This document shows positions 5,040-29,207 of a stretch of 64,000 bases of DNA, in pieces. Origin of the DNA: Isoetes taiwanensis (lineage: Eukaryota > Streptophyta > Lycopodiopsida > Isoetales > Isoetaceae). Made by a program: the position numbers and the translations under genes. The notes beneath the pieces are model-generated. The model was not told the origin of the DNA. It did not search any database and worked only from the letters and a program-made list of their open reading frames with translations. The DNA is taken from assembly GCA_021234155.1 (NCBI GenBank), contig JAJEKV010000020.1, positions 8,168,563-8,232,562 of the forward strand, written 5' to 3'. The number at the start of each line of letters is the position of its first letter. Position 1 is the first letter of the stretch.

Positions 5040-6492
5040 GAATAGTTTTTTAGCGTCCACGGAGACCAATTGGCCTATGGGACCCAAACAAAAAGAGGGC
5101 AGCAAGCGATATCGACCGTGATTAAAAACCCCACTACGAAAGGGTTTTCGAGGGAAAACCTTAGCAATAATAAGCATGTCGACACACTCATAAATGGCAT
5201 AGGACGGTTCAATACCGTCCCGTGGGACATAAACGAGTCCGCATCCATAACCTCCTCGGAGGTATGACCCCAACAATCCCATCGACGCCGTAGTCAATAA
5301 TCGATGCAACGGCTGGCCGTGCACTAGTAATCGAACATATCGCCTTTAATATGGGCAAATGCCGGGCAGATCTGGAGGGCATGACATTCATCCTCAATCG
5401 CGCCCGACAACAACACCGCAAAGCCTTTGCTCGTGGTTCCCGAGCCCAACGCCCCGCTTCAATGCGGAGGCGATGTGCACCGTCTTAATGGAAGCGATAA
5501 GTCCAAGCTTCTTCATGGGCAGCCGGATGTACAAGTACTAGTGTGGGCCTCTTTGTGAGCCTAGGATTGACTTGTGCGATAGTGTGCCGCCTTAACGTGC
5601 GCCGAGCCTCTGCATCCCGTGGCTTGCTAAGGAAAGTAGCATCCGTGTGCAGTTTAAGTGCCTCGCGATCTTTCTTTGTCATGACCGGACGCGATCCTGC
5701 TTGCCTCGCACACCCCAAAAAGAGAACCACCGAGTTTGCTTGTCTTTCCAAATAGGATTTCAGCGCGTTGGGGACCCATCGCCGCGGGCCAAAGCAAGGT
5801 GGGGCAAGCGCGTATCAGCCCATAGCGACCACCTTTTGGAAGTAAACGATATGGCGCTCCAATGCTGCCCCGCTGGAGGGGTAGAAAGCCCGCCTCCGGA
5901 GTAGGATCTGGTATGGAACTGTGGACTTTACCCCTGTGGCTCGCGCCAAGAAGGCCTTCTCGCACTGCCGAGGTCATTCCGTGTGTTGAGGGATATCACC
6001 GACCCCACACTTTATACAAAAGGACCGGCCCACCAAGGCCCTCAAACAAATGTGACGGTGGCCCCAGCATACAACTCCTCCTTTGTGGCTGTTGTTCTCG
6101 CATGGCATATAGTGCTTTCCAACCCGCCGTGACCATGTACTCGATAATCGCATCCCAATGAGTGGTAGTTGAGAACTCAATCCCCAAGTACTTGTAGGTC
6201 GGAGCCACCTCTACCTCCTGTCCCTGGTAAGTGAATGTGGGAAGCCTTGGCTGACGGGATGATGCAACTAGAAGCACCCTAGTTTTGGCCAAGTTAACTC
6301 GCATGCCAGTGAATTGGCAAAAAGTGTCAAGAGCATCCAAGTGACGTTGCATGTCCTCTGGAGTATAGGCCATGAGGTTGACATCGTCAGCATATATGAG
6401 TTGCCGGATTGTGTGATGCATGAGATGTGCGCCTGCACCTCCATGTTCAGAGAGCCAATCTTCCAACTGATCAATGTATAGGCCAAAGAGTC
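5040..6492 (-). mobile_element. LINE, reverse transcriptase C-terminal part and 3' UTR
   Basis: The minus-strand frame from about 6492 to 5996 shows the RT palm: LFGLYIDQLEDWL, then the catalytic YADDVNLMAYT, then TYKYLGIEFS. Further downstream the coding signal decays through several frames to about 5430. The 3' end (about 5150-5040) matches, in opposite orientation, the 3' tail of another LINE copy at 29070-29185. The upstream RT part is missing because foreign sequence starts at about 6493; the endonuclease half of a related element lies at 10036-12590 on the same strand. It is broken and cannot be autonomous. Confidence 0.85.
5125..5148 (-). other. Conserved LINE 3'-UTR stem-loop
   Basis: On the minus strand AAAACCC pairs with GGGTTTT across a 10-nt loop. 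The same stem with a different 10-nt loop occurs in the LINE copy at 29082-29105. An upstream GGTTTTC could also pair with the AAAACC arm, giving an alternative hairpin in both copies. Confidence 0.6.
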
Positions 6493-7629
6493 TTCATCCC
6501 TATTTTTGATTCAGTTCTTATATTTGGGTGCTGGAGAGGCCCTGCGGATCTCCAGTACAGGTTCATAATTTCGATATTATGCAGAATCTCAATCTGTTGT
6601 CTTGTGCCCAACGGGCAAGCCAATGGATGGTCTCATCCCTGAAGTATTCTTACTGCACATCTCCACCCGTTCGTGATAATATCAGAAGCCCACCGGCTCT
6701 CTAGATCTCCCTGCATATATTGCCCAGGTCCTGCAAAAGCAGAGCTGTGCAACCCACACAAACAATAGCCGTTTTTCTAAAAGGGGGCTATGTCTTTGAG
6801 CCCTCTTCTGCCACTGTTCGAGCTCGAAAATGTTATCTTTAGGTGCATCTTACTATGTCGCAGCATCCACATTTGGCCTTAAAACAGCAGATAGTCCAAA
6901 AGGGGCAAAATCACTCCGGTTTCCTCACGAAGCTTCTTCTTGCTCTGTTTCTTGTCAAAATCAGTACATTGTGTCTATCGATCAAGGCAACACATTTACT
7001 TTGTTCAGCTTCTATGCTCTGCCTTAAGCGGTATCTGAAAAAAAAAGTTTAGTCTCTTCATTTAAAAGCAGGGCTCATCATCCTTCCATAAGTTTTTTTT
7101 CTTCCCCCAACTGCGAGAAACAGAGGCCCAAAGGTTACAACAAACACATTTTTGCTTCGCTGCAAATCTACTCTCTTAAAGTATATGCCCTGTTTCTGTT
7201 TTTTAACTGTAATGCAAAAGGCTTTGATGCAGAGTTCCCGAGTTACACCATTGGTCGATCATCTGCTTCTTTCAAACATCACGTGCGCCCTTTGGGTCCT
7301 CCCAGGCTCAGCGACATAATGGAAGAACCTCTACTTTCTTTGGTAGCAACCAAGCTTCATTGGAATCATCAACAAATCCGGCAAGCATACAAACCATTCA
7401 GGCACATACCTCTCTTCGTGCTTCATCGACCTTCATAAAACTGTGGAAATTGAAGTCTTTCAGTCACCGCCAGACTCGTTTCACCCAGATCATAGCAGAT
7501 TCATCTCTTGCATTTTGGCAAATATATTGCACTATTCGTATGCACGGGTTCCTTCAGTTCATTCCGGCAGACCATCACACAACCATAAAGGCCTTGAGAA
7601 CTTCCACAACAAAGCAGCAAGTAACACCA

Positions 7630-12745: not shown

Positions 12746-12800
12746 CGCAGACCTCCTAAATTATGTATGAACCATCATTCAATTAAATTGGGATTATGTC
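12746..12800 (+). repeat. Left terminal inverted repeat
   Basis: Core at 12770-12800 (begins AACCATCATTC, ends GGGATTATGTC). It is the reverse complement of 22555-22585 apart from one base. The outer part (CGCAGAC...TATGTATG) resembles 22586-22611 with small gaps. Confidence 0.75.
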
Positions 12801-13439
12801 TTAATTTTGGGACAAATTTCATATTGCATGTTTTTAGTAGCATATTCAAATTCACACATTTCACCTCATTATTATGAAAACGTAATATCATATTATTTAC
12901 AAAATAGTCAATATTTCACAATATAGCACCATATCATAAAAACGTGATAACAAAAATTTACATAGTTATTCAACTTTTCTTCAAGCACCCCAATGATATC
13001 ATAGCCTTCTTCCCGACATCCCGAGGTATTGTAATTCTCGATTTCTAGCCGGAATAGTGTTTGGAGTCCATGAGTACAAAAAAAAACTTTCATAGTCTAG
13101 CCAAAGATCGATCACTCTGATTTCTCCTCCATCTCTTTGTCCAACAACTGACTACCTTTCTTTATCCGACACGCTGGTCAACCGATGCACCGGACACCAC
13201 CATTCCACCCGCAAGACATGGTTGAAGTTAATATTACCTTCTTCTTTGCAAATATCGAGATAGTGAACCCCAACCACACCGGATATGTATCTAAATCACT
13301 GGCTTTTACTACCACAAATTGGTGGCATTCCAAGTCAAGGAAGGTTCATAAGCATCCATGCCTAGAAACTTTGGCCTATTGTTCTTAGGACCAACATAGT
13401 GTTTGTCGGAGGAGGAGGAGCATATTGCTTTAATGAATG

Positions 13440-15860
13440 CTACTTACAAGTGTCATCAACATCCTCAAAGACTCGCTAAGATCTTCCACCTAGTTTTAGA
13501 CAACCACCCTTCTTTCAATTCATCTGAGGATGTGTCTATCTCCCCCAACAGGTTAATCACCTTCTTCTAGTAAGCCACCAAGGCACGGTTGGTGTCATCC
13601 GGATTGGTTTGCCAATGCTTTATATAGTCCCGATTCCTTCCTTAGTCAATCCCAATTGCTTCACTTCTTTAGTAGGTTTTAATGCTTTTTGGTTGACCTG
13701 AGAGGTATCATAGGCTTGCCATTCTCATCTCTACGCCATATTTCCTCCCCTCTTCTCCACTCATCCTCTCAATGTCTCATCTTCCATTGGAAGATTGGAA
13801 TCCCATCTCTCACCCAAAAGTGAACTGCAGAGGCCCTCGAATAACCTTCAAGATCCAATGTATAACCATCCACAAAGCTCTTCCAATCGGGCACTTCTTC
13901 TATGAGAGAACCTATAGGGTTTGGAGTAGTGCATTCATGCAAGATTTCCATTAGCCTAGGAAAGTTGGTCACCGTCACGCTTCAAGATACAACTATATTT
14001 GCCAAATAATGCATCCACATCCTCATGGGTATGCCCGCATAAGAAACCCAAATTAACTCTTTCAAATATCCCCACAAATGTTAAGTAGGATAGGAAAGAA
14101 AACATCCACTGTTTTATTTTGGCCAAGACAATTATCAAGTTGCAAGAGAAACCTTTTGGGTAGATCTTGAGGTCTAGCACGGAAGTTGAAGCTCCAACAC
14201 GCTCATTAGACCCATGCTTCCTAAACCTTGCCTTGTGAACTTTTCAATATTGTTAGGGTTTCCATCTAACAATGCTCTATGTAGTGCCCGGCTAGTCAGA
14301 GGGTCCCGAGGTGACCATTGTATCCATTTTCATAGTTTCTCAAACACCTCATGATACTCCCAATATGAAAAAATCTGACCATCACTCCACAACTCCAAAC
14401 TAAAATGGCCATAGTAGGTTTGAGTCCCGCCCATGCAAGATTGCCCCAAATATTGAGATCTGAAGGGGTATGATCTTCCACATGACTTTGGTATGTACTT
14501 GAATTGTGGAAGACAAGTCTTTTGCTGGTCCATCTTGTCATGTATAATACATAAATAGTTATTGGGTTCCAATGCGTATAATGTCCTCCACATCCAATAA
14601 CATGATCTACATGATAGTTGGTCACCATATGGTCCTTCATATGCTCCCTTTATCCTAGCCCTTTGACTAGGTTGCACGCCTTATCAAGAGTCTCCTTCAA
14701 CTTAGCACATAAATTGCACTTTGCAAAGTTGTTTGAAGTTGCTATGGTGACATGATTGAAATGCTTCTTCCATAACCTACTAAAGCTAGGTTGGGATATT
14801 GAAGAATTCCCAATTCCTCAAGTAGTGAATTCACTTCTTCCAAAATACTCTTTTGAGTACAATGTGATGGCAACCTTTTCTCAACAACCGCTTCTTCCCT
14901 TTTCATCCCTTCGCTTTTGTGTGGCATAGACTCGCATTGAAATCAATATATTTTTCAAATATCTCCCCGGCAACAAGGTCCTAGCCGTTGGTCTCAACAA
15001 ACCATTATTTCCATGTAAAGCAATCCCGTTCCCCTCACTGCTTTTTTTTGGCCAATTATGCCATGAAGAAGTTGGAATTGCATGGATAGTCCGCCATGCT
15101 TTTGCACATATCCATTTGCCTAGCAAAGGGTATCTTTTTCTCTGCTTGGTTTCTTTCATCCCTCAAGTGCATGCTCAAGATTGTGTACATGTAGGTCCTC
15201 CTCCTCTCATCAACAAAGGTACTTTGAAAAGTGGCTCTTGCTTCCACCAATTGTTCTATTGTAAAGAATTGCATACAAGCACTCCAACAACAATCTGAGC
15301 CCCTAACCTTCACCATTGTCTCAATGCTTGGTGTCACTAATCAACTTGGCTCTTTTGCTAGGATAATGTCCGCAACCGATACTTCTCCCTTTGCCTAGGT
15401 TTAGAGTTCCAACCGCCAATGGATCAATATCAAGACAATCATTGTCCCCAACAACCTCGCTCTCTCGAAAAATATAATCCTCCACAAATTGAACACTACT
15501 TATAGGCCATGCCATGATGCAAGGAACCTCCAATTGCTTGACACAACCAAAACATTCCTTGTCACCCAAACCTTTACCTTTCTAGTTGTCTTCCAACATC
15601 GAAATTGCAATACCAATATTGTCTTCCCCTAGCCTTTCATCATTAACAAATTTGACCAGATCCGCTAGCACAATGACTCCTTGGCCTACTATTTCCTTGT
15701 TGCACTTGTGCATGATTCTCACCTTCTTGTTCCTCCATTGCACCCTACTATATAGACTAATTGTTTTTCTTCAACATTCTTGCTAGGAGTTGGTTTTTCA
15801 TTGATATTGCTCTTTTCAATATGTTGCACACCATCTTGAGTTGGAGAGGCACCATTGACC
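13440..15860 (-). pseudogene. DUF7869-type transposon gene, decayed
   Basis: Minus-strand segments appear in the order known for proteins with a DUF7869 domain. An N-terminal region contains CAKAWRTIHAIPTSS followed by ALHGNNG (near 15130-15010). Then comes IIHDKMDQQKTCLPQ (near 14540), then a segment ending GFLCGHTHEDVDALFGKYS (near 14050-13995), then an acidic PDWKSFVDGY segment (near 13890). The His-rich GHTHED motif is the family hallmark. The biochemical role of the domain is not established to my knowledge; a transposase role is inference from the surrounding inverted repeats. Several frame changes and stops interrupt the gene, so it is not functional. The likely start is near 15860. 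Confidence 0.65.
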
Positions 15861-16266
15861 TAGGCAAATTTTACCATTTTTAGTCAATGAGTAGGAAAAA
15901 ATTATTACACCATAAGATAAAAAAAGTACGTACATTTATGGAATATGTAGAGGTAAATCAAATTTTTTTAAAAGCAAGAAATTCCTTGGAAATAGCTTTA
16001 ATATAATAATAACAATGGGTGTAAACGAAATCATTTAAAACAAGAATTTTCGTGGCAACAACAAGGAAATGACATTTATATAAATATATCTAAATTTTAA
16101 TTATCGAAAATTTGGATATATGATTACGAAAAGACATATAGCTGATAGACATGAGAATTTATTATCCATAATAATATACCCTAGATGATATAGTCAAGGA
16201 ATTTCAGACGCCTGCAAGCAGTTATTTGAGGCAATCAATTATTCACGCTAATTTCTAATTAACCCC

Positions 16267-16275
16267 TATATAAAT
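16267..16275 (+). promoter_or_regulatory. Putative TATA box of the plus-strand gene
   Basis: TATATAAAT lies about 120 bp before the acidic open segment at 16441 and between the two divergent genes. The position fits a core promoter; transcription is not shown. Confidence 0.35.
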
Positions 16276-16356
16276 CCGCTTCACGCCTCAAGACCTCCAT
16301 CCCGTCTAAATTTTTTTTCGCCTATGAAGCTGCCTCACCTCGGCCGACCTTCATGA

Positions 16357-16662
16357 AGAACCCGAGGTCCCTCAAAGAGATGTCGGGTTGAAGAACCCCC
16401 TCAATCCTCCCCCCTCCCCATTGATTTTCTTTCCCAATTCTCCTCTGATTCCTCCTCTGATGAAGAGGAGGAAGAGGAGGAGTTGGAGGAAGAGGAGGAG
16501 TTGGATTCGCAGAAGATGACCGCCTCGGCTTCGGGTTGGCTTGACCACGAAACAGAGAATGAATTCTCTCGGGCCGAGCCTGAGGAGGAGGAGGAGGAAG
16601 AAGATTCAGAAGGTGGTCGACAATTCGACCAATTTTTGGAGTGGTTGAGAGATGAACCAGGT
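16357..16662 (+). CDS. Acidic low-complexity segment, partial
   Basis: The frame is open from 16357, without an ATG until about 16516. It runs through a Ser/Asp/Glu tract (SSDSSSDEEEEEEL) and a second Glu tract, then ends RQFDQFLEWLRDEPG at a possible donor (CCAG|GTTTGC) followed by a poly-T run. It may be an early exon of the plus-strand gene of the inverted-repeat element. It could also be a purine-rich repeat that happens to be open. No known domain. Confidence 0.3.
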
Positions 16663-17393
16663 TTGCATGTTTGCTTTTTTTTTTTTTTTTTTTTGCTTTC
16701 TTTCTTTTCTAACACCTTTCTTTCTTCTTTGTTGCGGCGTGGAAGAAGAGTGTCCATGCGAGGTAAAAGCTTCATCCCAGAGCGCAACAAGAATCATCAG
16801 AACTCCTGACATACTTATCCCCGAAATGAATTCCATGACAAGCTTTGCAGTCGGATCGATGGAGTCGATCTTGCATAATCCTACTTTCCTTTTCTGATTT
16901 GTAGTTAACATGAAACATTCATCTTCGACACTGCAGACAATTGCCTATTCAAACACTTTTACTGGAAATTATTGTACAAGCTATAGGAATGAGATGCTTA
17001 CCAGAATTCTGTAGCCATTCTTGAGAAGCCGATTCGAAGTTCTCGAAATCACAAAAAGTATGGAAACGCAAAAGGCTCGGAAAAATTCGAGTTACAAGAA
17101 AGCTTAGGTTAATTACATTTTGGCAGGATAAATTTGGCGGGATACATTTTGGGTAGATTGGTTTTTAAAAACTCAATGAAAGAAGTCGGCGGACGGGTCT
17201 TCGTCATTATTATTTGTATGTGTTAAGAATATTTCGAAACTGCATTTTGTGTTTTCTTGAAATTCAAATTTCTCTCGTGCAGGTAGAAAATGCTATTTCT
17301 CGTACAGGTAGAAAAAGCTATTTCTTCGAGCAGCTCGAAAGGCCAGATCCGAAAGCGACCTTCCGACTCTGCTACTAGCGCTTAATTCCTGAG

Positions 17394-17510
17394 ATGTCTT
17401 CTAAAACGAATCGAGGTCGAGGCGGACGGGGCAGAGGAAGCGGTGGAAGAGGAATCTCAAAACCCGGCACTTCTCAAGTTTCAGAGGACGTTGATCGTAA
17501 TACCACGTAA
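17394..17510 (+). CDS. RGG-rich N-terminal segment
   Basis: ATG at 17394 opens MSSKTNRGRGGRGRGSGG and reads to a stop at 17508-17510 (38 residues). GT dinucleotides near the end could serve as donors into the segment starting near 17963. RGG/RG tracts usually bind RNA or DNA, which would suit an accessory protein of a transposon, but this is inference. It probably starts the plus-strand gene of the inverted-repeat element; the downstream parts are in mixed frames. Confidence 0.4.
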   Translation: MSSKTNRGRGGRGRGSGGRGISKPGTSQVSEDVDRNTT

Positions 17511-17962
17511 TACACGTAACCCTATTCAAGGTATTTAATTTGCCACGTATCATACACCGTGGTGGAGAGTATTATGCTTGCATGAATTTGAGATATTTCC
17601 TTGCCTTCGCTTAATATGCTTTGCATGAGTTTGAGTTATTATGCTTTGCATGAATTTTAAGTATTACCATCGCTTAATGCTCGATTGTCCGCTTTGTAGA
17701 ACATAATTTTGCTCGCTTTTTATAGAATATAGCAAAGGATGCTTGGAGATAGCAATAGTGTGAAATATGGATTCATAAAGGGTATGTAGCTTAAAATGTG
17801 GATGCAAACTAATTTAGTTTCAAATCCACGATAGCATGGTCAATAATAGGAGCTACCAACACGCCAAGCTGAATTGTACTAATTTAGGTTTAAATGCACG
17901 CCAAGCGTGATCTCTTGTTCCTCAAAAAGTACTCTAAAAAAAATGTTCATCTTCTTTTGTAG

Positions 17963-18609
17963 TGCCCAAGAGGAAGAAAACCACTAATAATTCGGGTTCT
18001 ATTCCCCGCCAAGAAAGCAAGGGTAGACGACCCGTCGCAAAGACCATATGATCTCACCTTAGATGATGAAGGGCCGATTCTTATAGCAACCAATCGACCC
18101 CCGCCACCTCAAGAGGAAATGGACGAGGGTGCCGAGTGGTACGCTGACCTTGCCAAGACAAATGGCAAGCTTGACTTAACTCTCTTCTCGAGGAAAAAGA
18201 AAGCGCATAAGATGACCAAACAAGGGATCCTAATCTCTTGTGAGGAAGAGGATGACACCACCGCAAATTGCTCTTGGAGATTACACATAAGCAAAAGAAA
18301 GATCCGCCGGACTTACTCACTTTGAGAGCTAATCGATACAAGGATACGCTCATGAAGACAGATGTGAACGGTGAGACATGTTTTAAGTATGGTTGGCCAA
18401 CCAATGTAGCGCTTACGCCAATATCTATTTGCCAAGGGGTTACAAAATGGCGCGTAGAGGCATGTTCACTAAAACCGACACCAAGTCACTATTTGCGCCA
18501 AGCTAGGGAATTAGCTGACTTGAAAGCTTCTAGGAGGGTCCTAGATCTAGGGAAGGATGTTCAACCCGCAGCTTGTCGGAAGGCATGGAGGCTTCGCTTT
18601 TTAGAATGA
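17963..18609 (+). pseudogene. Unknown plus-strand gene, middle part
   Basis: After a possible acceptor (TTTTGTAG at 17955-17962) a Lys/Arg-rich start (PKRKKTTNN) gives way, in other frames, to two coding-like blocks. The first is LTLDDEGPILIATNRPPPP to about 18250. The second is about 18300-18609 with RANRYKDTLMKTDVNGETC. Reading passes between frames, so it is broken or mis-spliced in my reading. I do not recognise the family. A decayed continuation may run to about 18900. Confidence 0.35.
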
Positions 18610-19149
18610 AGCTTTATTGGGTGGCGCAAAGCCTAGAGGCCATGAACAAGCTGAATAAGCACGACCATTATCCATTGGGTCTTAAGGAAAGTTTTATGAT
18701 CCATGTGAAGTCCCTCATCCGCTTCACCAAGCTCCATTTATGTTAGCGTAAGATATGATTCAAAGACATGCCATGGAGATTGTTCGTAGCATGATTAGTA
18801 ATCCGTGTCAAATGCCTATGCCAAATGATGTGTTACCTTGGGATACGATCTCGAACAAGCTCGGCAGTATGGACTAACGCCGAGGAGCTATTATTAAATA
18901 ATGATATTAAATTGGCCATCATCGACGGGCAAAGATTCCGTTGAGGCACAAAAAAGGCCCTCATCGTGCAAAAGAACAAACAGCCAAACCATGTTCTATA
19001 ATCACTATGCGATAGGAGGTGTCGCCTCTTGATGGCAATACTTCACCTGCAGATTTGGCTGAGATTAGTGCAACTTTGAATGAAATGGGGAAGACATTTC
19101 TATACAAAAGGTAATTTACTGCATTAGGATGTTAGCACTTTAATATTCA

Positions 19150-19425
19150 TGCCAGGCGTTCATTCAAATGAAACCAATTCACGCCAGGCGTGATTTCAAA
19201 AGATACCAAATCACGCCAGCGCAGTTAAATCAAACCAATTCAGCCGGGCGAATTGGTTTGATTTGAAAGCACGCCTGGCATGATTTGGTCTCATTTGAAA
19301 TCACGCTTGGCGTGAATTCAACCGATTCGAAAGCACGCCCGGCGTGAATTGCATTAGTATTTAATTCATTTCACGCCAGGCGTACTTTGAGGTTGATCTT
19401 TTCTATTGAAATCGCGCCCGACGTG
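19150..19425. repeat. Regular array of a 13-bp palindrome
   Basis: Nine copies of CACGCCNGGCGTG or close variants are spaced about 29-32 bp apart, widening to about 38-40 bp at the right end. Exact palindromes lie at 19180-19192 and 19334-19346. The intervening sequence is also partly repeated and inverted (AAACCAATT / AATTGGTTT, ATTTGAAA). Further single or degenerate copies lie at 17851, 17897, 21412-21560 and 22539. Confidence 0.85.
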
Positions 19426-19859
19426 TTTCTTGTCTTCTGATAGTGATTCAATGCCTGTACTTTTGGCAGTCTATATGTGGAGCAACTGCGCCACGCCCAT
19501 CAACAGTGGGTGGAATATGGCTGCCCATTACCCACCGCATGTATGGTCAAAGTCCGAGGCTTTCAAGTCTGGAGCGGACTCGCCGCATGCATAATTATAC
19601 AAGAGAAGAAGAAAATTGCAAGAAAATCAAAGAAAAAAAGGTGGTGATGACATTGCAGATCCTTCCTCGAAAGCTCATCTAGCGTGTCAGGCCCAACAGA
19701 CTCAGATAAAAGATTGTGTTTTGTAAGGAGGCAAGATGGCAAAAGTGGAATGAATTCGGGACGCTTATGCACAAGGGAAGCCGCCGATACTATGGGTAGG
19801 GTGCCTCCCTCGTTGATGTAAGCATCTTTGACTTGAATGTGACGAGATGAGAAAGACTT

Positions 19860-20200
19860 AGGGGCTAGACGACGCCGAGACCATTTGGGTTTTATACCAA
19901 AGCTTAAAGAAGGAAGTCTTATACAAGAAGAGTGCTTTCACTAAGGATAGGATGTCCTTCGCTGAGTGCCGCAAATATGTGAAGGATGTACGTACAATGA
20001 AGTCACCAGTAGGAGCCGAAGTTACAAAGGCTATCGGGGATGTGGCATTATCCGAAATTGGATTGTCGGACAAATACAAGGTCAAGAATGATGACATCAA
20101 GAAGTTTGTATTATGGTCAAAGGACTTCCTAAAGAATTGGAAGGCTAAAAATACAAAACATAAGGAGACTCTACCCCTAAGGTACTTGGGCCGAAGTTGA
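19860..20200 (+). pseudogene. Unknown plus-strand gene, later part
   Basis: A coding-like block runs DDAETIWVLYQSLKKEV, then MSFAECRKYVKDVRTMKSP, VALSEIGLSDKYKVKNDD and FVLWSKDFLKNWKAKN to a stop at 20198. It is rich in Lys/Asp/Glu and predicted helical. A further short block (KKITGEEDTAQRFTSIGYKG) follows in another frame to 20290. The family is not recognised. It belongs, by position and strand, with the segments at 17963 and 21873. Confidence 0.4.
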
Positions 20201-21411
20201 GAAGAAAAGTGGCCCTTGTGAAGAAGATTACCGGAGAAGAAGACACCGCCCAAAGATTCACCTCCATTGGGTACAAAGGTCTCTTGCCGTAATCAACCGA
20301 TTGCCTTAAAAATATATCACTCTTTGTGTTGGACAAAGGGTGGGAGAGGAGATATGGGCATGAATCGGAAGACTACAAAGCAGCTTATTTACCACCGTGA
20401 TAGGATTGACAACCGAGAGGTCCTTCACCGAGGGATGCCTAATATATGATGTTAAAGATAATGAGTCATAACATAACTAAGATGGCACATGTGATCTTTA
20501 TTATGATAGCCATGTTTGTCGACGAGGAATATGATATTGCTAAGGCCAAGGGTGACAATAGCAAAGCATGGGAATGTTTTCTTCTAGATGATCCGTGACT
20601 TAAGAACTATATTCTATCATACGGATCGATCACCGTAACGGGATGAGTCGAAGAGGATGAGGATCGGGACCCCTCCTAAGTGGGGAAATCAAGCACGAGC
20701 TACAAACTAAGGAGAAGGGCCCCTTAAATAAAAATGGGATTTCCGCCTATGGTCGCTTACCTCGTCGAGGCATTTGCTCCAATTGATACAACCCGCTTGG
20801 AGCTTCATGTTGAGGTTATATTGCCCGAGAGGCTCTTATGGGTGTTAGAAGATGTCACCGCTTTGTGAGTGATGAGCAGCCAAAGACTTTCTTGAACCAT
20901 TCCTCATGCATGTGCTTGCCAAATCTCCTAAAGGCCCTTATGGCAACCTGAAAAATCATCAGAATCAAAAAGTCTCAGACTTGTCCAATTCGAAAGTGGA
21001 CGATGGTTCCGTGAGGGAACTAGTAATGCGCAAACGAAAAAGGAAAGCAATGAACAAATAGTCTGCTAAACCGGCTGCTCAAAGTAATGTGATCGCTGGG
21101 CGAATTTAAGGAATATCCTTGCCTCCCTTCGTGGTGATGCAAGCAACAATAGAGGAGATTCACAAAGTTAACAATGAACTAATTGACAGGGTAACCAAAA
21201 CAAGGCAACCAAGGCGACTCTAGTGATTCACGGTGTTTGCCAAATCAATAGTAAAATAATGTCGGGCCAGAAGGACGCAAATGGAACTAATAGAAAATAA
21301 CAATTCTAACAAATCGTAAGAGCACGACGATTAAGGGTGGCTAAGGGGCTTAAGGGGAGAATGACGCCGACGGCGGCAAATGGCCGAAGATGATAGGTAT
21401 GGCCTTGCCCA

Positions 21412-21560
21412 TTTAAAATCGCGCCACGCCGTGATTTAATTTGTATTACCTTTGAATTAAATCGCCAGCCCGTGTTTTTGATTATTTTTCGTTGTCAAAC
21501 AAAATCACGCCGAGCGCCGATTTGGTTAAGACTATCTCAAATCACGCTTGGCGCTTTTGT
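21412..21560. repeat. Second, degenerate palindrome cluster
   Basis: Four degenerate relatives of CACGCCNGGCGTG (for example TCACGCTTGGCGC at 21542) lie within 150 bp, each next to ATTTNATTTG-like words as in the main array at 19150-19425. Confidence 0.6.
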
Positions 21561-21872
21561 ATTGTTTGTGTTATCGTATCTTGGCCGACCGGATACATGT
21601 TTGATGTTTCCACTTCCATTGCGTTTCTAAGAAGGTTGTGGTGTTCGACCTAAACGGAGTCCTTTACAAGACTTTTCCAAAAAATAAAGTGGCTAGAGAT
21701 CGGTTTCATCGACACCAAAGAGAATCAAACACCAAGTGGATCTATCCGCGGCGCACTTGAAGGAGATGCTAGATGAGGCATTCAGTGTTATTTCGAGTTG
21801 GTATTTGGTCATCCATGGAACTAAGGAACATCAAGGATACTTTGGAGGCACTGGGGAAATGCGAGACATTGG

Positions 21873-22247
21873 TTGACCTTTTGGGATCGTAACAAATGTG
21901 TGAAGTTCACTAATCCCAAGGATCCAACAGGCAAGCCTATCTTCATCAAACACTTGAGTAACATGATCGACGAACTTGGTATCGAGAATAAGGATGATAT
22001 AATCATAGTGGATGATGATGCTCTCAAATGCTTCTACAATCAAATGCAGGCCCTGAATCCACCATCTTACGATCCAAAAAACTTTGCGACAGATGATTTT
22101 CTGGTGAAGTTTGTGTCTATTATGCATAATTTGGCTATGGGGATGATGGTGGGTGAAGTGTTAGATTCATACCCAGACCTGGATAGAACGGCTGACATGG
22201 AACCACACCTTGTTAAATACGTGGAAAAACATGGATTGATCCCTTAA
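21873..22247 (+). CDS. Unknown plus-strand gene, C-terminal part
   Basis: From ATG 21873 to a TAA at 22245-22247, 124 residues, beginning MTFWDRNKCVKF and ending VEKYGLIP-like (VEKHGLIP). An acidic centre (ENKDDIIIVDDDALKCF) is followed by helical segments. A coding-like stretch upstream (about 21740-21872) lies in another frame, so the ATG may be an internal Met. No known domain was recognised. It ends about 300 bp before the right inverted repeat, which fits the 3' end of the element's plus-strand gene. Confidence 0.45.
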   Translation: MTFWDRNKCVKFTNPKDPTGKPIFIKHLSNMIDELGIENKDDIIIVDDDALKCFYNQMQALNPPSYDPKNFATDDFLVKFVSIMHNLAMGMMVGEVLDSYPDLDRTADMEPHLVKYVEKHGLIP

Positions 22248-22554
22248 TGTTTTATTGGAATATATGATATTTTTGTATGATATTTGTGCCATGTATCGAT
22301 AATTTCGAGTCTGGAATTGCCTCGCAAATAATGCAATCTGTTATTATCAAACCTAGTATTATCATCTAAATGCTCTTCAATTTTGGTCTAATCTATGTTA
22401 GCAACTTGCTCTTCATTTTTGCATATTTCAATTTGCATATGAAACGTCACACGTGAATCGCAACCTTATGTTATTTTTGAAGTCCAAAAAAAAAAGATTA
22501 AAAAAAACAAAAACCCCCTAGAAGACAACAGCAGGTTGGCGTGATTTTGGAGTT

Positions 22555-22611
22555 GACATAATCCCAATTTAATTGGATGATGGTTTATGCTTACATATTT
22601 TGCAGTCTTCG
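22555..22611 (-). repeat. Right terminal inverted repeat
   Basis: Reverse complement of the left repeat: 22555-22585 matches 12770-12800 with one mismatch. A palindrome half-site (GGCGTG) lies just inside at 22538. Beyond 22611 similarity to the left flank ends. Confidence 0.75.
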
Positions 22612-24270: not shown

Positions 24271-26830
24271 TTACAAATGTTGCAGTGAATTAGTAGCTGT
24301 AAACAGCAAACCCAAAAAAATTACCTGCTTAGTTTAGGACTAATGCCTTCACTATGCAAGGAACACCAAAAGATGAGACTACGTGCAACCAACAGGCACT
24401 ATATTATACTCATTTTAATGTCAATACCTTCAACTTGCTCATTTTGGTGCTGATGCCTCTAGCCTGCTATTTAAACCATCATGTATATGCCATAAACACA
24501 TAAAGAAATTTTGACAAGTGCTAAGGTATCAGAATGTTGAGTTGGTGAAAAGAACAGTGTTGAATATTGTTTTATGACATCTTTGTATATAGATTAATTA
24601 AACTGAATGTTTGGAGAAATGCTTTATTTTGAGAAATGTTCTCACTGATCACACAAAGAGTCACGATGGCTGGACATTTTCTAGGTCTTGCTCAATCATA
24701 AATTTCCTTGTGGGGCTGAAATGACAGCCGCATTTTCTGCTTTAATGCTAGGTAAGCAGCGAGTTGCTTCGTGGTTCTCCAATGAGAAATAAGCATCTTA
24801 TAACCAAATGTTGACTTTAGAACATCCCCATTGTCTGCCCAACGACATCATTAGAGTATGCAAATAGCTTATAAGACTCTAAAAAGTACAAGCTACCTAC
24901 ACATATATTGCTCAACATATCAGATTATAATAGTTTGACAGCAAACTAAGGTCAGATATATGTGCAAGCTTATAGAACCATGCAGACATATAATAGGCGT
25001 TCATAGCTACCAAATTATATACATAAGACTTACTTGTTTGAAGTAATGTTCATGAGTTCCAGTTTTTCCCTGGGTATGCACATTAGTGGTAAGTATATAT
25101 CTGCAGAAAAAACAAGGGCAATAAGAACATATCATTAGCTCTAGACTCAATATATGTGAAGACTGAAGATATCGTATCCAATCCAGACGCAGACATGTTG
25201 ATCCATTGTTATGTCTGAGAGTATTCAAGCATTGGCAATAGATACTATTAGTTATACATCTAAATATCAGCAGCTATTGTTTCACTAAAAACGGAGATTT
25301 AGCTTGCATTAATATCGATATTATTGACACTATTACAAAAAGATGGCTTGCCAACAAAATTAGGAGGCCTAATTTGCTCTGACCGGTAGTGGTGCTTTCT
25401 CCTCACTACCTTCTCTCCCATCTACAATTCAAGAAACAATTTAGCCAACAAGCTTCATAACCTTTATCTAGTGCAAGCAAATTGTCCAGCTAAACAACTA
25501 ACTGACTTTATTAAAGTGGCAATCTTTTCACCGGATCGTGTTGATCTTGCCTCTCTTGCCATGCCAACACAAATATGGAGATAATTAAGCTGGCTATATC
25601 CAAGATATACATTCAAAATTCACAACGAATTGTGTAGTTGCATCCAAACAAAGGCCCATTCAGCAAACTCAACAATTGTTTTCATAGGAATGCTGATAAT
25701 AAGAATTAAGTAATGGAAATAATTAGTTTCAGAAAGTTCTCCTACCATCAATGAAATGTCAATGTAACTGGTTGCTAATGTCAATAAAACCAACACTGTT
25801 GATGTTAAGCATATGAATGCTACCTGAGGCATGCAATAACGATTAGGTGCCTTTTGCTATTTTCTGCTTCATAAATGTTCCTTTTGTGAGCAGACAGCTG
25901 TACCTCGCTGGCATTGCTCCAATGACAACAGAATAGTAATATTGTTGCCCTTAAACATTAAAATTACATCTCCTCAAATTCAGTAGCTAGCTCACTAAAT
26001 GCAACTATGTTCTCGATTAGTCTATAGTATGAGATCAACTATATAACCAATAAATTTCACATCCAGAAAAGCTCACTGTAACGCTCTCTATGGGAAGAGG
26101 TTCATTGATCTATAAACACGGAAACTCAAACAACCATATAAGTTGTAATTTACATTCAAATGGCATATCTTTGTAGCTTATCACATCCAATATCAAATGG
26201 GTTTTTAAAGCAGCCAATAGGAGGTCCATTAGGTAGAGTACAATCTACACTTTTCTTGGATGAAAGCTCCTTGGCCAACACTCCTTGCTACATTGCCATG
26301 AACTTCCATCTCTGTATTATAACGATGGAAGAAGTCTTGCTGGTGAAATAAAAACACTTGAGGTGGATAGTATTACATCAGGTTCTGGCTAAGAACTAAA
26401 TGGGAAAACATGGGCCTTATTGAAGTGCACATAGAACCTTCTCTTTGATAGGCCATTGGCAAAGGTTTAAAGAATCAGATGTTATACCTGCTCTTTCATA
26501 GGTCTTGGCAAAGATTTAAAGAATCAGAGGTTGTTTTAAAGCCGCTTTCGCTTAAAAGCTCACTTTCAATCGTTTCTTATTGTAAACAAACTTGCGGTAA
26601 TTTTTGAAGGATTACCATGCATGAGTATGAGGATCAAAAAGGTCATACGCAACTCACCTCTTGTTCAAGATTGAAAGAATTTATATTTTGAATTTCAAAA
26701 GAGTTGTGCATTATTCATAAGTCACACTTTCAAAGTTGGAATTTACTGCAAATCCTTACTGCATTGAAAATAACATATCAGTCCATGGATAAACGAAACT
26801 GAAACAACAAAAAAATACGATCGCCAAACA
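24271..26830. other. No gene recognised
   Basis: AT-rich intergenic-like sequence with scattered short frames on both strands; none shows a motif, splice-supported extension or repeat structure that I can defend. Confidence 0.5.
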
Positions 26831-26844
26831 GAGCGACAGGTGAG

Positions 26845-28213
26845 ATGTGTAGAAGAAAAACCTTTCTACTTTGCCGTTGCACAAGAAAAACCTTCTGCAT
26901 CGTCGCTGTAGGTAAACCTTCTTTCAATTCTGACTTAAAAGGTACCATACAAGAGCTCATTGGTTGCTTGCTTTGTGTAGCTAATAGCACACGTCCTGAT
27001 ATTGCATATGCAGTTAATTTTTTAAGCCGTTTTTTAAATAATCCAGGACAGGCACATTGGCTCGCAGCAAAACGAGTTCTTAGGTATTTGAAAGGAACTC
27101 TTAATCATGGATTGGAGTATAAGGTGGGCAAAGAACCTAGTTTAGCGCCCAAGGCTTATGCTGATGCAGATTGGGCAGGAGACTTAGATTCTCGGAAACC
27201 CACCTCTGGGTATGTCACTATGTTAGGAGAACCTGCAATATCATGGCGAAGCAAAAAGCAATCCTCAGTTGCAATGTCTTCAGACGAAGCAGAATATGCA
27301 GCAGTATCTCTAGTAGCAAAGGAAATAGTGTGGCTCAAGGGTCTTCTACTCGAACTTGGAATTATACAGGATAGTGTAGTGCATATATATAGTGATAGCA
27401 TGAGTTGCATAGCTATGACAAAAAATCCAGTAATGCACGAGAGGACCAAGCACATTGAGCTACGTATGCATTTTGTTAGAGATTTGGTCGTGAAAGGATT
27501 GATATAGGTTTTATATATATCGACCAATAATCAAATGGCAGATTTACTGACAAACCACTGCAAGAAGACAAATTCAATAAATTTAAACTTGGACTTTGCA
27601 TTGGAAACCCTTGTGACATGAAGAAGGAGTGTTAAAATAATAGTTAAAAGATAATCATGTCACAATAGAAATTTGAGGTGCATGATTTACACATAATAGG
27701 CCAGGTGGAAATATCAGAAATTTTTTGGATCATCGCATATAGCATAAAGGCGAGATCGGATTAATTGAAGGTGAAGACAGACGGATTAGAAAGTACAAGT
27801 GTCGGATTGCTGTAAGCCAGACCGGATTTGCTGAGCAGGCCAGACCGGATTTGTTGAGCAGGCCAGACCGGAGTTGCTGAGCAGGTCAGGCCAGATTTGC
27901 TGAGTGGTCTTCCCGGAACTGTTTTTCTATTGCAGGCCTAGCCTGATTACTCTGAACAGCCGATTAATCTTGCTCCAATTTCATGCTGCGACAGACTATG
28001 GGCTCAGGCTGCTCTGGATTTTCTAGCCAGAAGATATGGAATAGCAGTGAATCGCTAAGCCTTGATTGCTCTGGCTTTTTCTAGCCAGAAGATACTGAAT
28101 TGCAGTGGATCACTAAGCCTTGTTTGCTCTGGCTTCTTCTAGCCGGAATATATTTGTCGCAGTGGATCACTATTTATTTGTTAGTTACATACTGTCTTGC
28201 TGAAATATCAACA
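26845..28213 (+). mobile_element. Ty1/copia fragment with 3' LTR
   Basis: The frame to 27507 carries the end of a copia reverse transcriptase (GCLLCVANSTRPDIAYAV) and RNase H (KAYADADWAGDLDSRKPTSG, SSDEAEYAAVS, KTKHIELR-like end). A purine run and a TGTTA start at 27630 mark the LTR, which closes with ATCAACA at 28213. Everything upstream of the RT end (gag, integrase, 5' LTR) is absent, so it is a 5'-truncated fossil. The retained frame is long and the remnant has few breaks, suggesting moderate age. Confidence 0.8.
27630..28213 (+). repeat. Copia LTR, about 584 bp
   Basis: TG...CA bounded. It carries two internal tandem repeats: four 23-bp units at 27818-27908 (CAGACCGGATTTGCTGAGC core) and about 2.7 units of about 59 bp at 28012-28170 (CTCTGG...TCTAGCC...GAT.ACTAAGCC). 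These make the U3 region unusually repetitive. Confidence 0.65.
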
Positions 28214-29207
28214 GAGCCTGTCCTTTTATACGGGGTTGAAGTATGGGGCCCAGTAGTATTCCTCGCTACCTGGAATGACTTGGAACAGGTGCAGAAAGCC
28301 TTCTTGGTACGAGCACTAGGGTTGAAGTCCACAATTCCATATCAAATTCTACTACAGAAGACGGGATTCTTGCCTCTTCAGAGGGCGGCCCTTGATCGCC
28401 ACATTGTCTATTTCTAGAAGGTGGTCAATATGGACGATGCTCGTCTCCCTAACCTAGCTTATATCATGGCAATGGGGCCGCAGCACCTTAAGGCCTGTTG
28501 GAGGGAAAAGAGATCTCAATGGTTGGCTAGATGGAATATGCATGAGCTATAGCTTGAGGCAATATCTTGACCCTTGCTTCCTCAGCAAGCTTTGGGATGC
28601 CAGTGCCCTTGAACAGGTCAAGACAACACGCTATCAGCGCCACATAAATCCCACATTGGAACGATGCCCGCAATGCTACCTGCATATCCACTTGCCCATG
28701 AAAAGGCACAGACTCATTGCCTCCATTCGCACAGGGGCACACCATCTTCGAATTGAGACGTGCAGATGGATTGGTGAGCCACGCCAGGACAGGCTCTGTC
28801 AATGCTGCCAAATGGGAGTCATTGAGGATGAATCTCATACCCTTCAAAACTGCCCAGCATATGATCAAATCCGAACGCGCTATGCTGAGTTGGTCAGGCC
28901 TGGCCAGCCGCTATATGTGACATTGAGAACGGCTTTCGTACGGGTGCTGGGATCATACCTTTAGGAGATTATGGACATGCGAGATCAGCTATGTCTGACA
29001 TGTATATATACATTTATTTCATGATGATGTATACTTGTACAGTTTGACAACATTCTTATTACTGCCATGGTTTTTCCCTCGAAAACCCTTCAGGGTATGG
29101 GTTTTTTAACCCAGACAGTAATAAGTTTGCTGCACTCCTTCTGAGTCCCATAGGCCAATTGGTGTCAGTGGACGATAAAAATCATTCATTCTTTCTTTCT
29201 TTCTTTG
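28214..29207 (+). mobile_element. LINE, RT C-terminus, zinc finger and 3' UTR
   Basis: Coding starts directly after the copia LTR with PVLLYGVEVWGP, a typical post-RT motif, and runs to about 28416. In a second frame (about 28560-28964) it continues to a zf-RVT type end with RLCQCCQMGVIEDESHTL and NCPAYDQIR, the CCHC knuckle of plant LINEs, ending at a TAG near 28962. At least one frame change separates the two parts. The 3' UTR (29070-29185) matches that of the LINE at 5040-5160. It ends in a TTCT microsatellite (29190-29207) and not in poly(A). Confidence 0.85.
29082..29105 (+). other. Conserved LINE 3'-UTR stem-loop
   Basis: AAAACCC and GGGTTTT pair over a 10-nt loop, as in the copy at 5125-5148. 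GGTTTTT lies just upstream and could compete for the AAAACC arm. Confidence 0.6.

What the first reader, a model, noticed from the sequence alone, without database searches (positions are those of the whole stretch)
12746..22611. Large inverted-repeat element with a DUF7869 gene and an unknown divergent gene
Two inverted repeats 9.8 kb apart match over 31 bp with one difference and extend with weaker similarity. Between them lie a minus-strand DUF7869-type gene, a divergent plus-strand gene of unknown family with acidic and RGG segments, and private palindrome arrays. I know no named plant DNA-transposon superfamily with this content. If confirmed, DUF7869 could be a transposase or transposon-borne factor in this lineage (inference).
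Basis: partly seen in the sequence, partly recalled or inferred. Interest (0 to 1): 0.82.

Follow-up and report, generated by a model that had tools for sequence, protein, structure and literature searches.

The report
Giant Sola-like transposon in a quillwort
The stretch is a decayed copy of a large jumping gene in what is probably the quillwort Isoetes taiwanensis; its uncharacterised DUF7869 gene is probably the enzyme that moves it, and its second gene ends in a phosphatase domain and may also bind and methylate DNA.

Summary
The window copy runs 12770-22585 (9,816 bp) with 31-bp terminal inverted repeats (one difference) flanked by TATG. Its genome (size matches Isoetes taiwanensis) holds 3,176 such ends at up to 3 mismatches, reversed control 0. 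Five full-length copies measure 12.3-13.0 kb; the window copy lacks about 2.4 kb. All 18 copies read at both ends have an exact 4-bp target duplication, and one copy interrupts an ORF with 38 uninterrupted relatives among 40 scored places. It is a bona fide DNA transposon.

DUF7869 (E 2.7e-39 in another copy) also sits in a second element family with its own left end, so it is most likely the transposase. The 4-bp duplication, TIR and size fit the named Sola superfamily, so 'no named superfamily' is probably wrong; protein-level membership could not be tested. The plus-strand gene ends in an NIF/FCP1-like phosphatase domain (E 3.4e-15) and shows weak ParB-like and methyltransferase-like signals, the pair reported opposite the transposase in an Ectocarpus Sola1 element. 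Both Isoetes families carry private palindrome arrays near this gene, possible binding sites of its product (inference). The RNase H-like fold was not tested.

The parts
12766..12769 (.). left 4-bp target-site duplication TATG
12770..12800 (+). left terminal inverted repeat, 31 bp, outer end AACCATCATTC
   Evidence: match stops here (query 24-25) in 27 of 36 other copies scored
12973..15859 (-). decayed DUF7869 (putative transposase) gene; limits approximate, carried over from open frames in other copies
   Evidence: 560-aa open frame in another copy, L025:7147-8826, E 2.7e-39
13956..14680 (-). DUF7869 core of this copy, split over three frames: LCIIHDKMDQQKTCLP, LQLDNCLGQNK and GHTHEDVDALF segments
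   Evidence: motif columns
16328..16650 (+). first exon of the plus-strand gene: basic then acidic N terminus; limits approximate, start Met read in copy C1034
16750..16752 (.). junction where 2.4-2.5 kb present in the five full-length copies is missing from this copy
17896..19385 (.). six palindromes TCACGCCNGGCGTGA (up to 2 mismatches), five of them clustered at 19179-19385 with spacings of 90, 32, 32 and 38 bp
18690..18945 (+). ParB-like / DGQH segment (AIIDGQ), decayed in this copy; limits approximate
   Evidence: weak model matches in other copies
20728..20948 (+). possible DNA-methyltransferase motif-I segment, decayed and split over two frames; limits approximate
   Evidence: weak; no family match for the first family's own piece
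21605..22247 (+). NIF / FCP1-like phosphatase domain (VVVFDLNGVL), C-terminal part of the plus-strand gene
   Evidence: E 7.5e-4 here; E 3.4e-15 in copy L044:2504-3136
22555..22585 (-). right terminal inverted repeat, 31 bp, outer end AACCATCATCC
22586..22589 (.). right 4-bp target-site duplication TATG

Best explanation
This is an internally deleted, mutated copy of a 12-13 kb TIR DNA transposon family of (probably) Isoetes taiwanensis, best placed with the Sola, perhaps Sola1, superfamily. Shown: paired 31-bp TIRs, insertion that duplicates 4 bp of target, empty sites, 3,176 ends in the genome, and two divergent genes between the ends. Inferred: the minus-strand DUF7869 protein is the transposase, which binds the TIRs, cuts the element out and inserts it through a D-D-acidic active site (IIHDKMD, LQLDN, GHTHxxxD). 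Inferred: the plus-strand gene encodes an accessory protein with an acidic N terminus, a ParB-like DNA-binding part, a DNA methyltransferase-like part and (clear) an NIF/FCP1-like phosphatase, which binds and marks the element's own DNA and so influences its transcription or silencing. In the window copy both genes are broken.
For: TSD of exactly 4 bp in 18 of 18 copies read at both ends (6, 2 fetched and read, 10). TIR counts 1598 + 1578 against control 0 + 0. Of 100 listed exact places, 21 consecutive convergent pairs lie under 40 kb, 13 of them 12.0-12.9 kb apart. Empty site: joined flanks match uninterrupted at 38 of 40 scored places, best 98% over 400 of 400; the other two are the copy's own flanks 12.3 kb apart. 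DUF7869 E 2.7e-39; in the genome 9902 candidates, 150 scored, 150 over the cut-off. A second DUF7869 family is inserted in a TATA site of the first, and its left limit recurs (query 38-50) in 34 of 39 other scored places. LQLDN, NKN and GHTHxxxD are kept over three lineages. Shared variants in DUF7869 are 44 amino-acid-changing to 26 silent, singletons 125 to 33 (Fisher p 0.014). NIF E 3.4e-15. The weak ParB-like and MTase-like signals stand in one gene on the strand opposite DUF7869, as in Ectocarpus Sola1-1.
Against: No Sola transposase sequence was available, so homology of DUF7869 to Sola is untested; the RNase H-like fold is untested. The first acidic motif (IIHDKMD) was seen in one family only. 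By codon position the shared DUF7869 variants are 22/22/26, no third-position excess. ParB-like and MTase-like matches are all below curated cut-offs: DndB E 0.04 in the whole C363 frame and 0.0032 in its trimmed piece, 0.081 in the trimmed C1067b piece, whose longer frame had no match. The second family's ParB-like piece has no ParB match. For MTase, the second family's 113-aa frame has no family match; its 84-aa trimmed piece gives E 0.18 and 0.0036, and the two-family profile E 0.25 to RsrI methylase. The first family's own frame gives no MTase match. tblastn of the first family's plus-gene pieces finds no significant similarity in the second family (all E above 1). No DPPY-type motif lies between the two segments in the copies scanned. 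The codon test shows no clear selection on the plus-strand gene. The right end of the second family was not found.
Confidence: 0.68

Rival explanations
1. The element is a DNA transposon of a new superfamily: DUF7869 is its transposase but is not related to Sola; the shared 4-bp TSD is coincidence.
For: Pfam gives no other family over cut-off for the DUF7869 protein pieces scanned, no PDB sequence matches it beyond chance, no paper in the held library names DUF7869, and no Sola sequence could be compared.
Against: TSD length, TIR length, size and a host outside the flowering plants fit Sola as described in PMC10741241; the opposite-strand gene weakly resembles that of Ectocarpus Sola1-1.
Confidence: 0.22
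2. DUF7869 is a passenger and the plus-strand gene, or an unrecognised gene, supplies the transposase.
For: Evidence of constraint on DUF7869 is modest and its fold is untested; much of the plus-strand gene has no family match.
Against: DUF7869 also occurs in a second family with a different recurrent left end, at about 40% identity, and in very many further places. The plus-strand gene gives an NIF phosphatase match and no transposase match in the pieces scanned.
Confidence: 0.08
3. The plus-strand gene is a patchwork of captured host gene pieces (for example a plant NIF phosphatase exon) with no role in transposition.
For: NIF is a domain of cellular genes; its DLNGV motif resembles, from memory, plant NIF-like proteins. 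No clear sign of selection in the codon test. tblastn finds no similarity of this gene to the second family's fetched part.
Against: The same 3' end reaches the TIR in 27 other scored places. Segments of the second family can be aligned to the ParB-like and MTase-like segments by position and motif, at only 27-28% identity.
Confidence: 0.28
4. Not a transposon: a segmental duplication or an assembly artefact with chance inverted repeats.
For: None found.
Against: 18 of 18 four-bp TSDs of varied sequence, empty sites, 3,176 ends against control 0.
Confidence: 0.005

Closest known systems
Sola superfamily of DNA transposons (Sola1; e.g. Sola1-1_Ec32 of Ectocarpus, PMC12477816; superfamily description in PMC10741241; Sola2 with 4-bp TSD in PMC3627910; passages only of each)
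   Same: 4-bp TSD, TIR within the reported length range, large size, host outside the flowering plants, second gene on the opposite strand; ParB-like and methyltransferase-like signals there are weak here.
   Different: Here the transposase candidate is a DUF7869 protein, the second gene ends in an NIF phosphatase domain, there are private palindrome arrays near that gene, and there are 3,176 ends in one vascular-plant genome. Homology to Sola transposases was not tested.
Pfam PF25273 (DUF7869)
   Same: Direct domain match, E 2.7e-39.
   Different: The Pfam entry carries no function; here the domain is tied to defined transposon ends and TSDs.
EnSpm/CACTA giant plant transposons
   Same: Size over 10 kb, short TIR.
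   Different: CACTA/CACTG ends and 3-bp TSDs are absent.
KDZ elements (Zisupton, Dileera), some carrying a DNA-modifying TET/JBP gene in fungi (PMC12730594, passages)
   Same: DNA transposons that can carry a DNA-modifying accessory gene.
   Different: 8-bp TSD; no match of the proteins scanned to any Pfam transposase family.

Membership tests
Sola superfamily | 4-bp target-site duplication | tested here: met
   18 of 18 copies
Sola superfamily | TIRs of 11-1124 bp; size mostly 2-9 kb, some over 15 kb (PMC10741241) | tested here: met
   31-bp TIR; five full-length copies of 12.3-13.0 kb
Sola superfamily | DDD/E transposase homologous to Sola1/2/3 transposases | not testable with these tools
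   no Sola sequence held; the two papers tried are not held (the second DOI was given from memory); conserved LQLDN and GHTHxxxD motifs only
Sola1 with ParB-MTase gene (as Sola1-1_Ec32) | opposite-strand gene with ParB-like and N6/N4 methyltransferase domains | tested here: inconclusive
   weak matches only, below curated cut-offs, and several scans with none
EnSpm/CACTA | CACTA/CACTG ends and 3-bp TSD | tested here: not met
   ends AACCATCAT, TSD 4 bp
PIF/Harbinger | 3-bp TSD TAA/TTA | tested here: not met
hAT; Mutator; KDZ/Zisupton | TSD of 8 bp; 7-12 bp; 8 bp | tested here: not met
   longest exact flank repeat is 4 in 10 of 10; 4 by eye in the other 8
piggyBac / Kolobok | TTAA target (Kolobok from memory) | tested here: not met
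   0 of 18 TSDs are TTAA
Ginger | TG..CA ends, TSD 4-6 bp, Gypsy-like integrase | tested here: not met
   ends AA..TT; no integrase match in the pieces scanned
DUF7869 (PF25273) | score over the gathering cut-off of 26 bits | tested here: met
   39.2 bits in the window, 135.2 bits in another copy
RNase H-like DDE transposases | RNase H-like fold with acidic triad | not tested
NIF/FCP1 phosphatases (PF03031) | score over the cut-off of 21.8 bits | tested here: met
   56.5 bits in copy L044:2504-3136; 19.6 bits, under the cut-off, in the broken window copy

The most novel reading that the evidence does not exclude
Giant DUF7869 (Sola1-like) transposons of a lycophyte carry a private self-marking system. 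An accessory protein with ParB-like, DNA-methyltransferase-like and NIF-phosphatase parts recognises arrays of family-specific palindromes inside the element (TCACGCCNGGCGTGA in one family, AAATRGCGCAGCTGCGCCATTT in the other). It methylates or otherwise marks its own DNA, in the manner of bacterial parS sites, helping the element to escape silencing or to mark new copies. Palindrome and protein would have co-evolved family by family.
Probability: 0.2. Interest if true: 0.86.

Novelty: new variant of a known kind. Interest (0 to 1): 0.62.

Why it matters
It proposes a function for a domain of unknown function that is very common in this genome (9902 candidate places, the best 150 scored and all over the cut-off): the DUF7869 protein is tied here to defined ends, 4-bp target duplications and empty sites. 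If it joins Sola1, many genes now called unknown could be annotated as transposases. Giant transposons with DNA-modifying accessory genes, reported from algae and fungi, would extend to an early vascular plant at high copy number. The palindrome arrays make it possible to test directly whether a eukaryotic transposon marks its own DNA.

Tried and rejected
Relatives outside the genome: DUF7869 profile scans of IMG/VR viral contigs and GTDB genomes gave 24 and 41 pattern stretches, none confirmed; 0 of the 14 control genomes. PDB sequence search with DUF7869 gave only chance hits. The right end of the second family was not within the fetched stretch. A DPPY-type motif was looked for between the ParB-like and motif-I-like segments and not found; matches elsewhere were taken as chance. 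NCBIfam added nothing for the ParB- and MTase-like parts, though it gave HAD-type matches at E 1e-4 for the NIF piece. The readings 'PTB domain' (E 0.015-0.027) and 'SPT8 propeller' (E 0.0024-0.015) for plus-strand pieces were rejected as far below the cut-offs. Selection on the plus-strand gene: no clear signal; in the NIF exon the singletons (33:24) and not the shared variants (19:4) were poor in amino-acid changes, opposite to expectation. Structure prediction was not run, for the reason given in the membership table. Literature: in ten searches I saw no listing, abstract start or passage on DUF7869 or on Sola elements in Isoetes; I read passages of the two Isoetes genome papers for these words, no whole text, and the library holds open-licence papers only.
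Full report
What is there. The window lies in a 1,658,258,908-base assembly of 1,110 contigs. The published Isoetes taiwanensis assembly has 1658.30 Mb in 204 scaffolds and 909 contigs (PMC8566536, passages), so I take the host to be this quillwort (inference from size only). The reported inverted repeats are real and are the only two matches in the window. Flanks and other copies set the ends at 12770 and 22585.

It is a transposon family. The TIR occurs 1598 times forward and 1578 reverse at up to 3 mismatches, with 0 and 0 for the reversed control. The DNA searches scored 28 of 5461 and 37 of 3588 candidates, so copy counts from them are lower bounds. 3,176 ends would make about 1,600 elements (inference). 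Of the 100 exact left-variant places listed, 21 consecutive convergent pairs lie under 40 kb, 13 of these 12.0-12.9 kb apart; 5 neighbouring pairs under 40 kb have other orientations. I fetched 10 copies. Five have both ends in the stretch and measure 12.3-13.0 kb (C1034, C1036, C1056, C1063, C1067a). In the other five (C363, C1018, C1067b, C941, C1033) no right end was found in the stretch, and in C1033 no left TIR either at up to 5 mismatches. The window copy lacks 2.4-2.5 kb near 16751 that the five full-length copies have.

Target duplication and empty site. All 18 copies read at both ends have an exact 4-bp duplication: TATG (window), TAAT, TTTA, ATAG, TACT, AAGG, ATGA, GATT (fetched, printed, compared by eye), AGTT, CAAA, TATA, CCTC, AACT, GATT, TAGA, ATGC, CATT, ATAA. 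In the ten the longest exact flank repeat is 4. Of the 15 convergent pairs under 14 kb, 12 were read and 3 (C5, C24, C223) were not. Copy C1034 interrupts a Helitron-like ORF. Its joined flanks with one TACT give one open frame and match without interruption at 38 of the 40 places scored (of 364 candidates), best 98% over 400 of 400 bases; the other two places are its own flanks 12.3 kb apart.

The DUF7869 gene. In the window the gene is in pieces; PF25273 matches 13956-14243 (E 7.2e-10). In copy C363 a 560-aa open frame matches at E 2.7e-39. The family is very common in this genome: 9902 candidates, 150 scored, 150 over the cut-off, 0 of 14 control genomes. Copy C1018 carries, inserted at a TATA of the first family, a second element family. 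Its left limit (query 38-50) recurs in 34 of 39 other scored places. It has its own terminal sequence (AAGCAGAGTTTCATTAAAGTTGGAATTC; 240 + 217 places, control 0), which by eye resembles the first TIR, and a DUF7869 gene about 40% identical. With a third sequence (L069) the invariant columns include LQLDN, NKN and GHTHxxxD. Upstream the first family has LCIIHDKMDQQKTCLP; that part was not readable in the other two. The order of acidic motifs is what an RNase H-like DDE transposase would show, but that is inference; no fold was computed. In 12 copies of the 560-aa region, variants shared by two or more copies are 44 amino-acid-changing to 26 silent, singletons 125 to 33 (expected ratio 3.23; Fisher p 0.014). 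This modestly suggests that the gene was kept working between insertions; against it, shared variants show no third-position excess (22, 22, 26).

The plus-strand gene. It starts with a basic then acidic exon and ends with an NIF/FCP1-like phosphatase domain (E 3.4e-15 in copy C1063; 7.5e-4 in the window). In between, two weak signals agree with a published precedent. A segment ending IIDGQHSVEA matches DndB at E 0.04 in the whole C363 frame, 0.0032 as a trimmed piece, and 0.081 in the trimmed C1067b piece, whose longer frame had no match. A ParB-like phage family matches at E 0.44. The second family has INGNHSVAAAQ (27% identity over the aligned piece) but no ParB match of its own. Further on, the second family's 113-aa frame with IVLDFFSGGAFSRASLHVGR has no family match, while its 84-aa trimmed piece matches N6_N4_Mtase at E 0.18 and a phage DNA methyltransferase family at E 0.0036. 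The corresponding first-family frame gives no methyltransferase match. A profile of the two (28% identity) finds in the PDB only the methylase RsrI, at E 0.25. tblastn of the first family's plus-strand pieces against the second family's fetched part finds nothing below E 1, and no DPPY-type motif was seen between the segments. So the ParB and methyltransferase readings are leads. The precedent is the 21.5-kb Sola1-1_Ec32 element of Ectocarpus, with a ParB-like plus N4/N6 methyltransferase gene on the strand opposite the transposase (PMC12477816, passages); that paper says similar proteins are known from green and red algal transposons.

Palindromes. TCACGCCNGGCGTGA (up to 2 mismatches) occurs in 10 of 11 first-family copies looked at, 1 to 15 times each; the exception, C1018, holds only the left part of the first family. 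A longer exact form occurs at 95 places in the genome, control 0. The second family has a different one, AAATGGCGCAGCTGCGCCATTT: 1487 places at up to 2 mismatches, control 0. Of 50 such places listed, 33 lie 7.0-15.1 kb inward of a listed left end of that family, 0 only outward, and 17 have no listed left end nearby; the list of ends was incomplete. In both families the arrays lie between open frames of the plus strand, so probably in introns. That they are sites for the ParB-like part is my inference.

Placement. TSD, TIR, size and host fit Sola as described in PMC10741241 (passages). CACTA, Harbinger, hAT, Mutator and Ginger are excluded by the TSDs or ends given there, Zisupton by its 8-bp TSD (PMC12730594, passages), piggyBac by its TTAA target (abstract start), Kolobok by the same target (recalled). 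Direct homology to Sola transposases could not be tested. I therefore say that it works like, and probably is, a Sola element, at about 65%.

Noticed in passing
L027:4995 onward (C1018:32420457): A second high-copy DUF7869 element family with its own end sequence and a different palindrome array, inserted at a TATA site of the first family; right end not found.
   Followed up: partly
genome-wide, e.g. C1018:2451208, C1081:6389563, C1034:11587087: Among the 150 best-scoring DUF7869 places are open frames of 987, 857 and 784 aa; they score above the best first-family copy scanned (135 bits), so they are probably other lineages (inference).
   Followed up: no
copy C1034 flanks (L041, L042): The copy interrupts a Helitron-like ORF (by eye); relatives of that stretch are themselves abundant (364 candidates, 40 scored).
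   Followed up: yes
copies C1067b (L036), C941 (L038) and C1033 (L040): Frames that read by eye like Copia polyprotein pieces (C1067b, C941) and a LINE reverse transcriptase (C1033) lie in or just beyond the right part of these copies; not searched.
   Followed up: no
window 26803-27507 (+): Open frame that reads by eye like the end of a Copia polyprotein (reverse transcriptase / RNase H); not searched.
   Followed up: no
window 5996-6493 (-) and 28458-28964 (+): Frames that read by eye like pieces of LINE reverse transcriptases; not searched.
   Followed up: no
L019:1501-1636: A right end of the first family followed by only 136 bp of element sequence, so a deleted copy or a junction with another sequence.
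   Followed up: no
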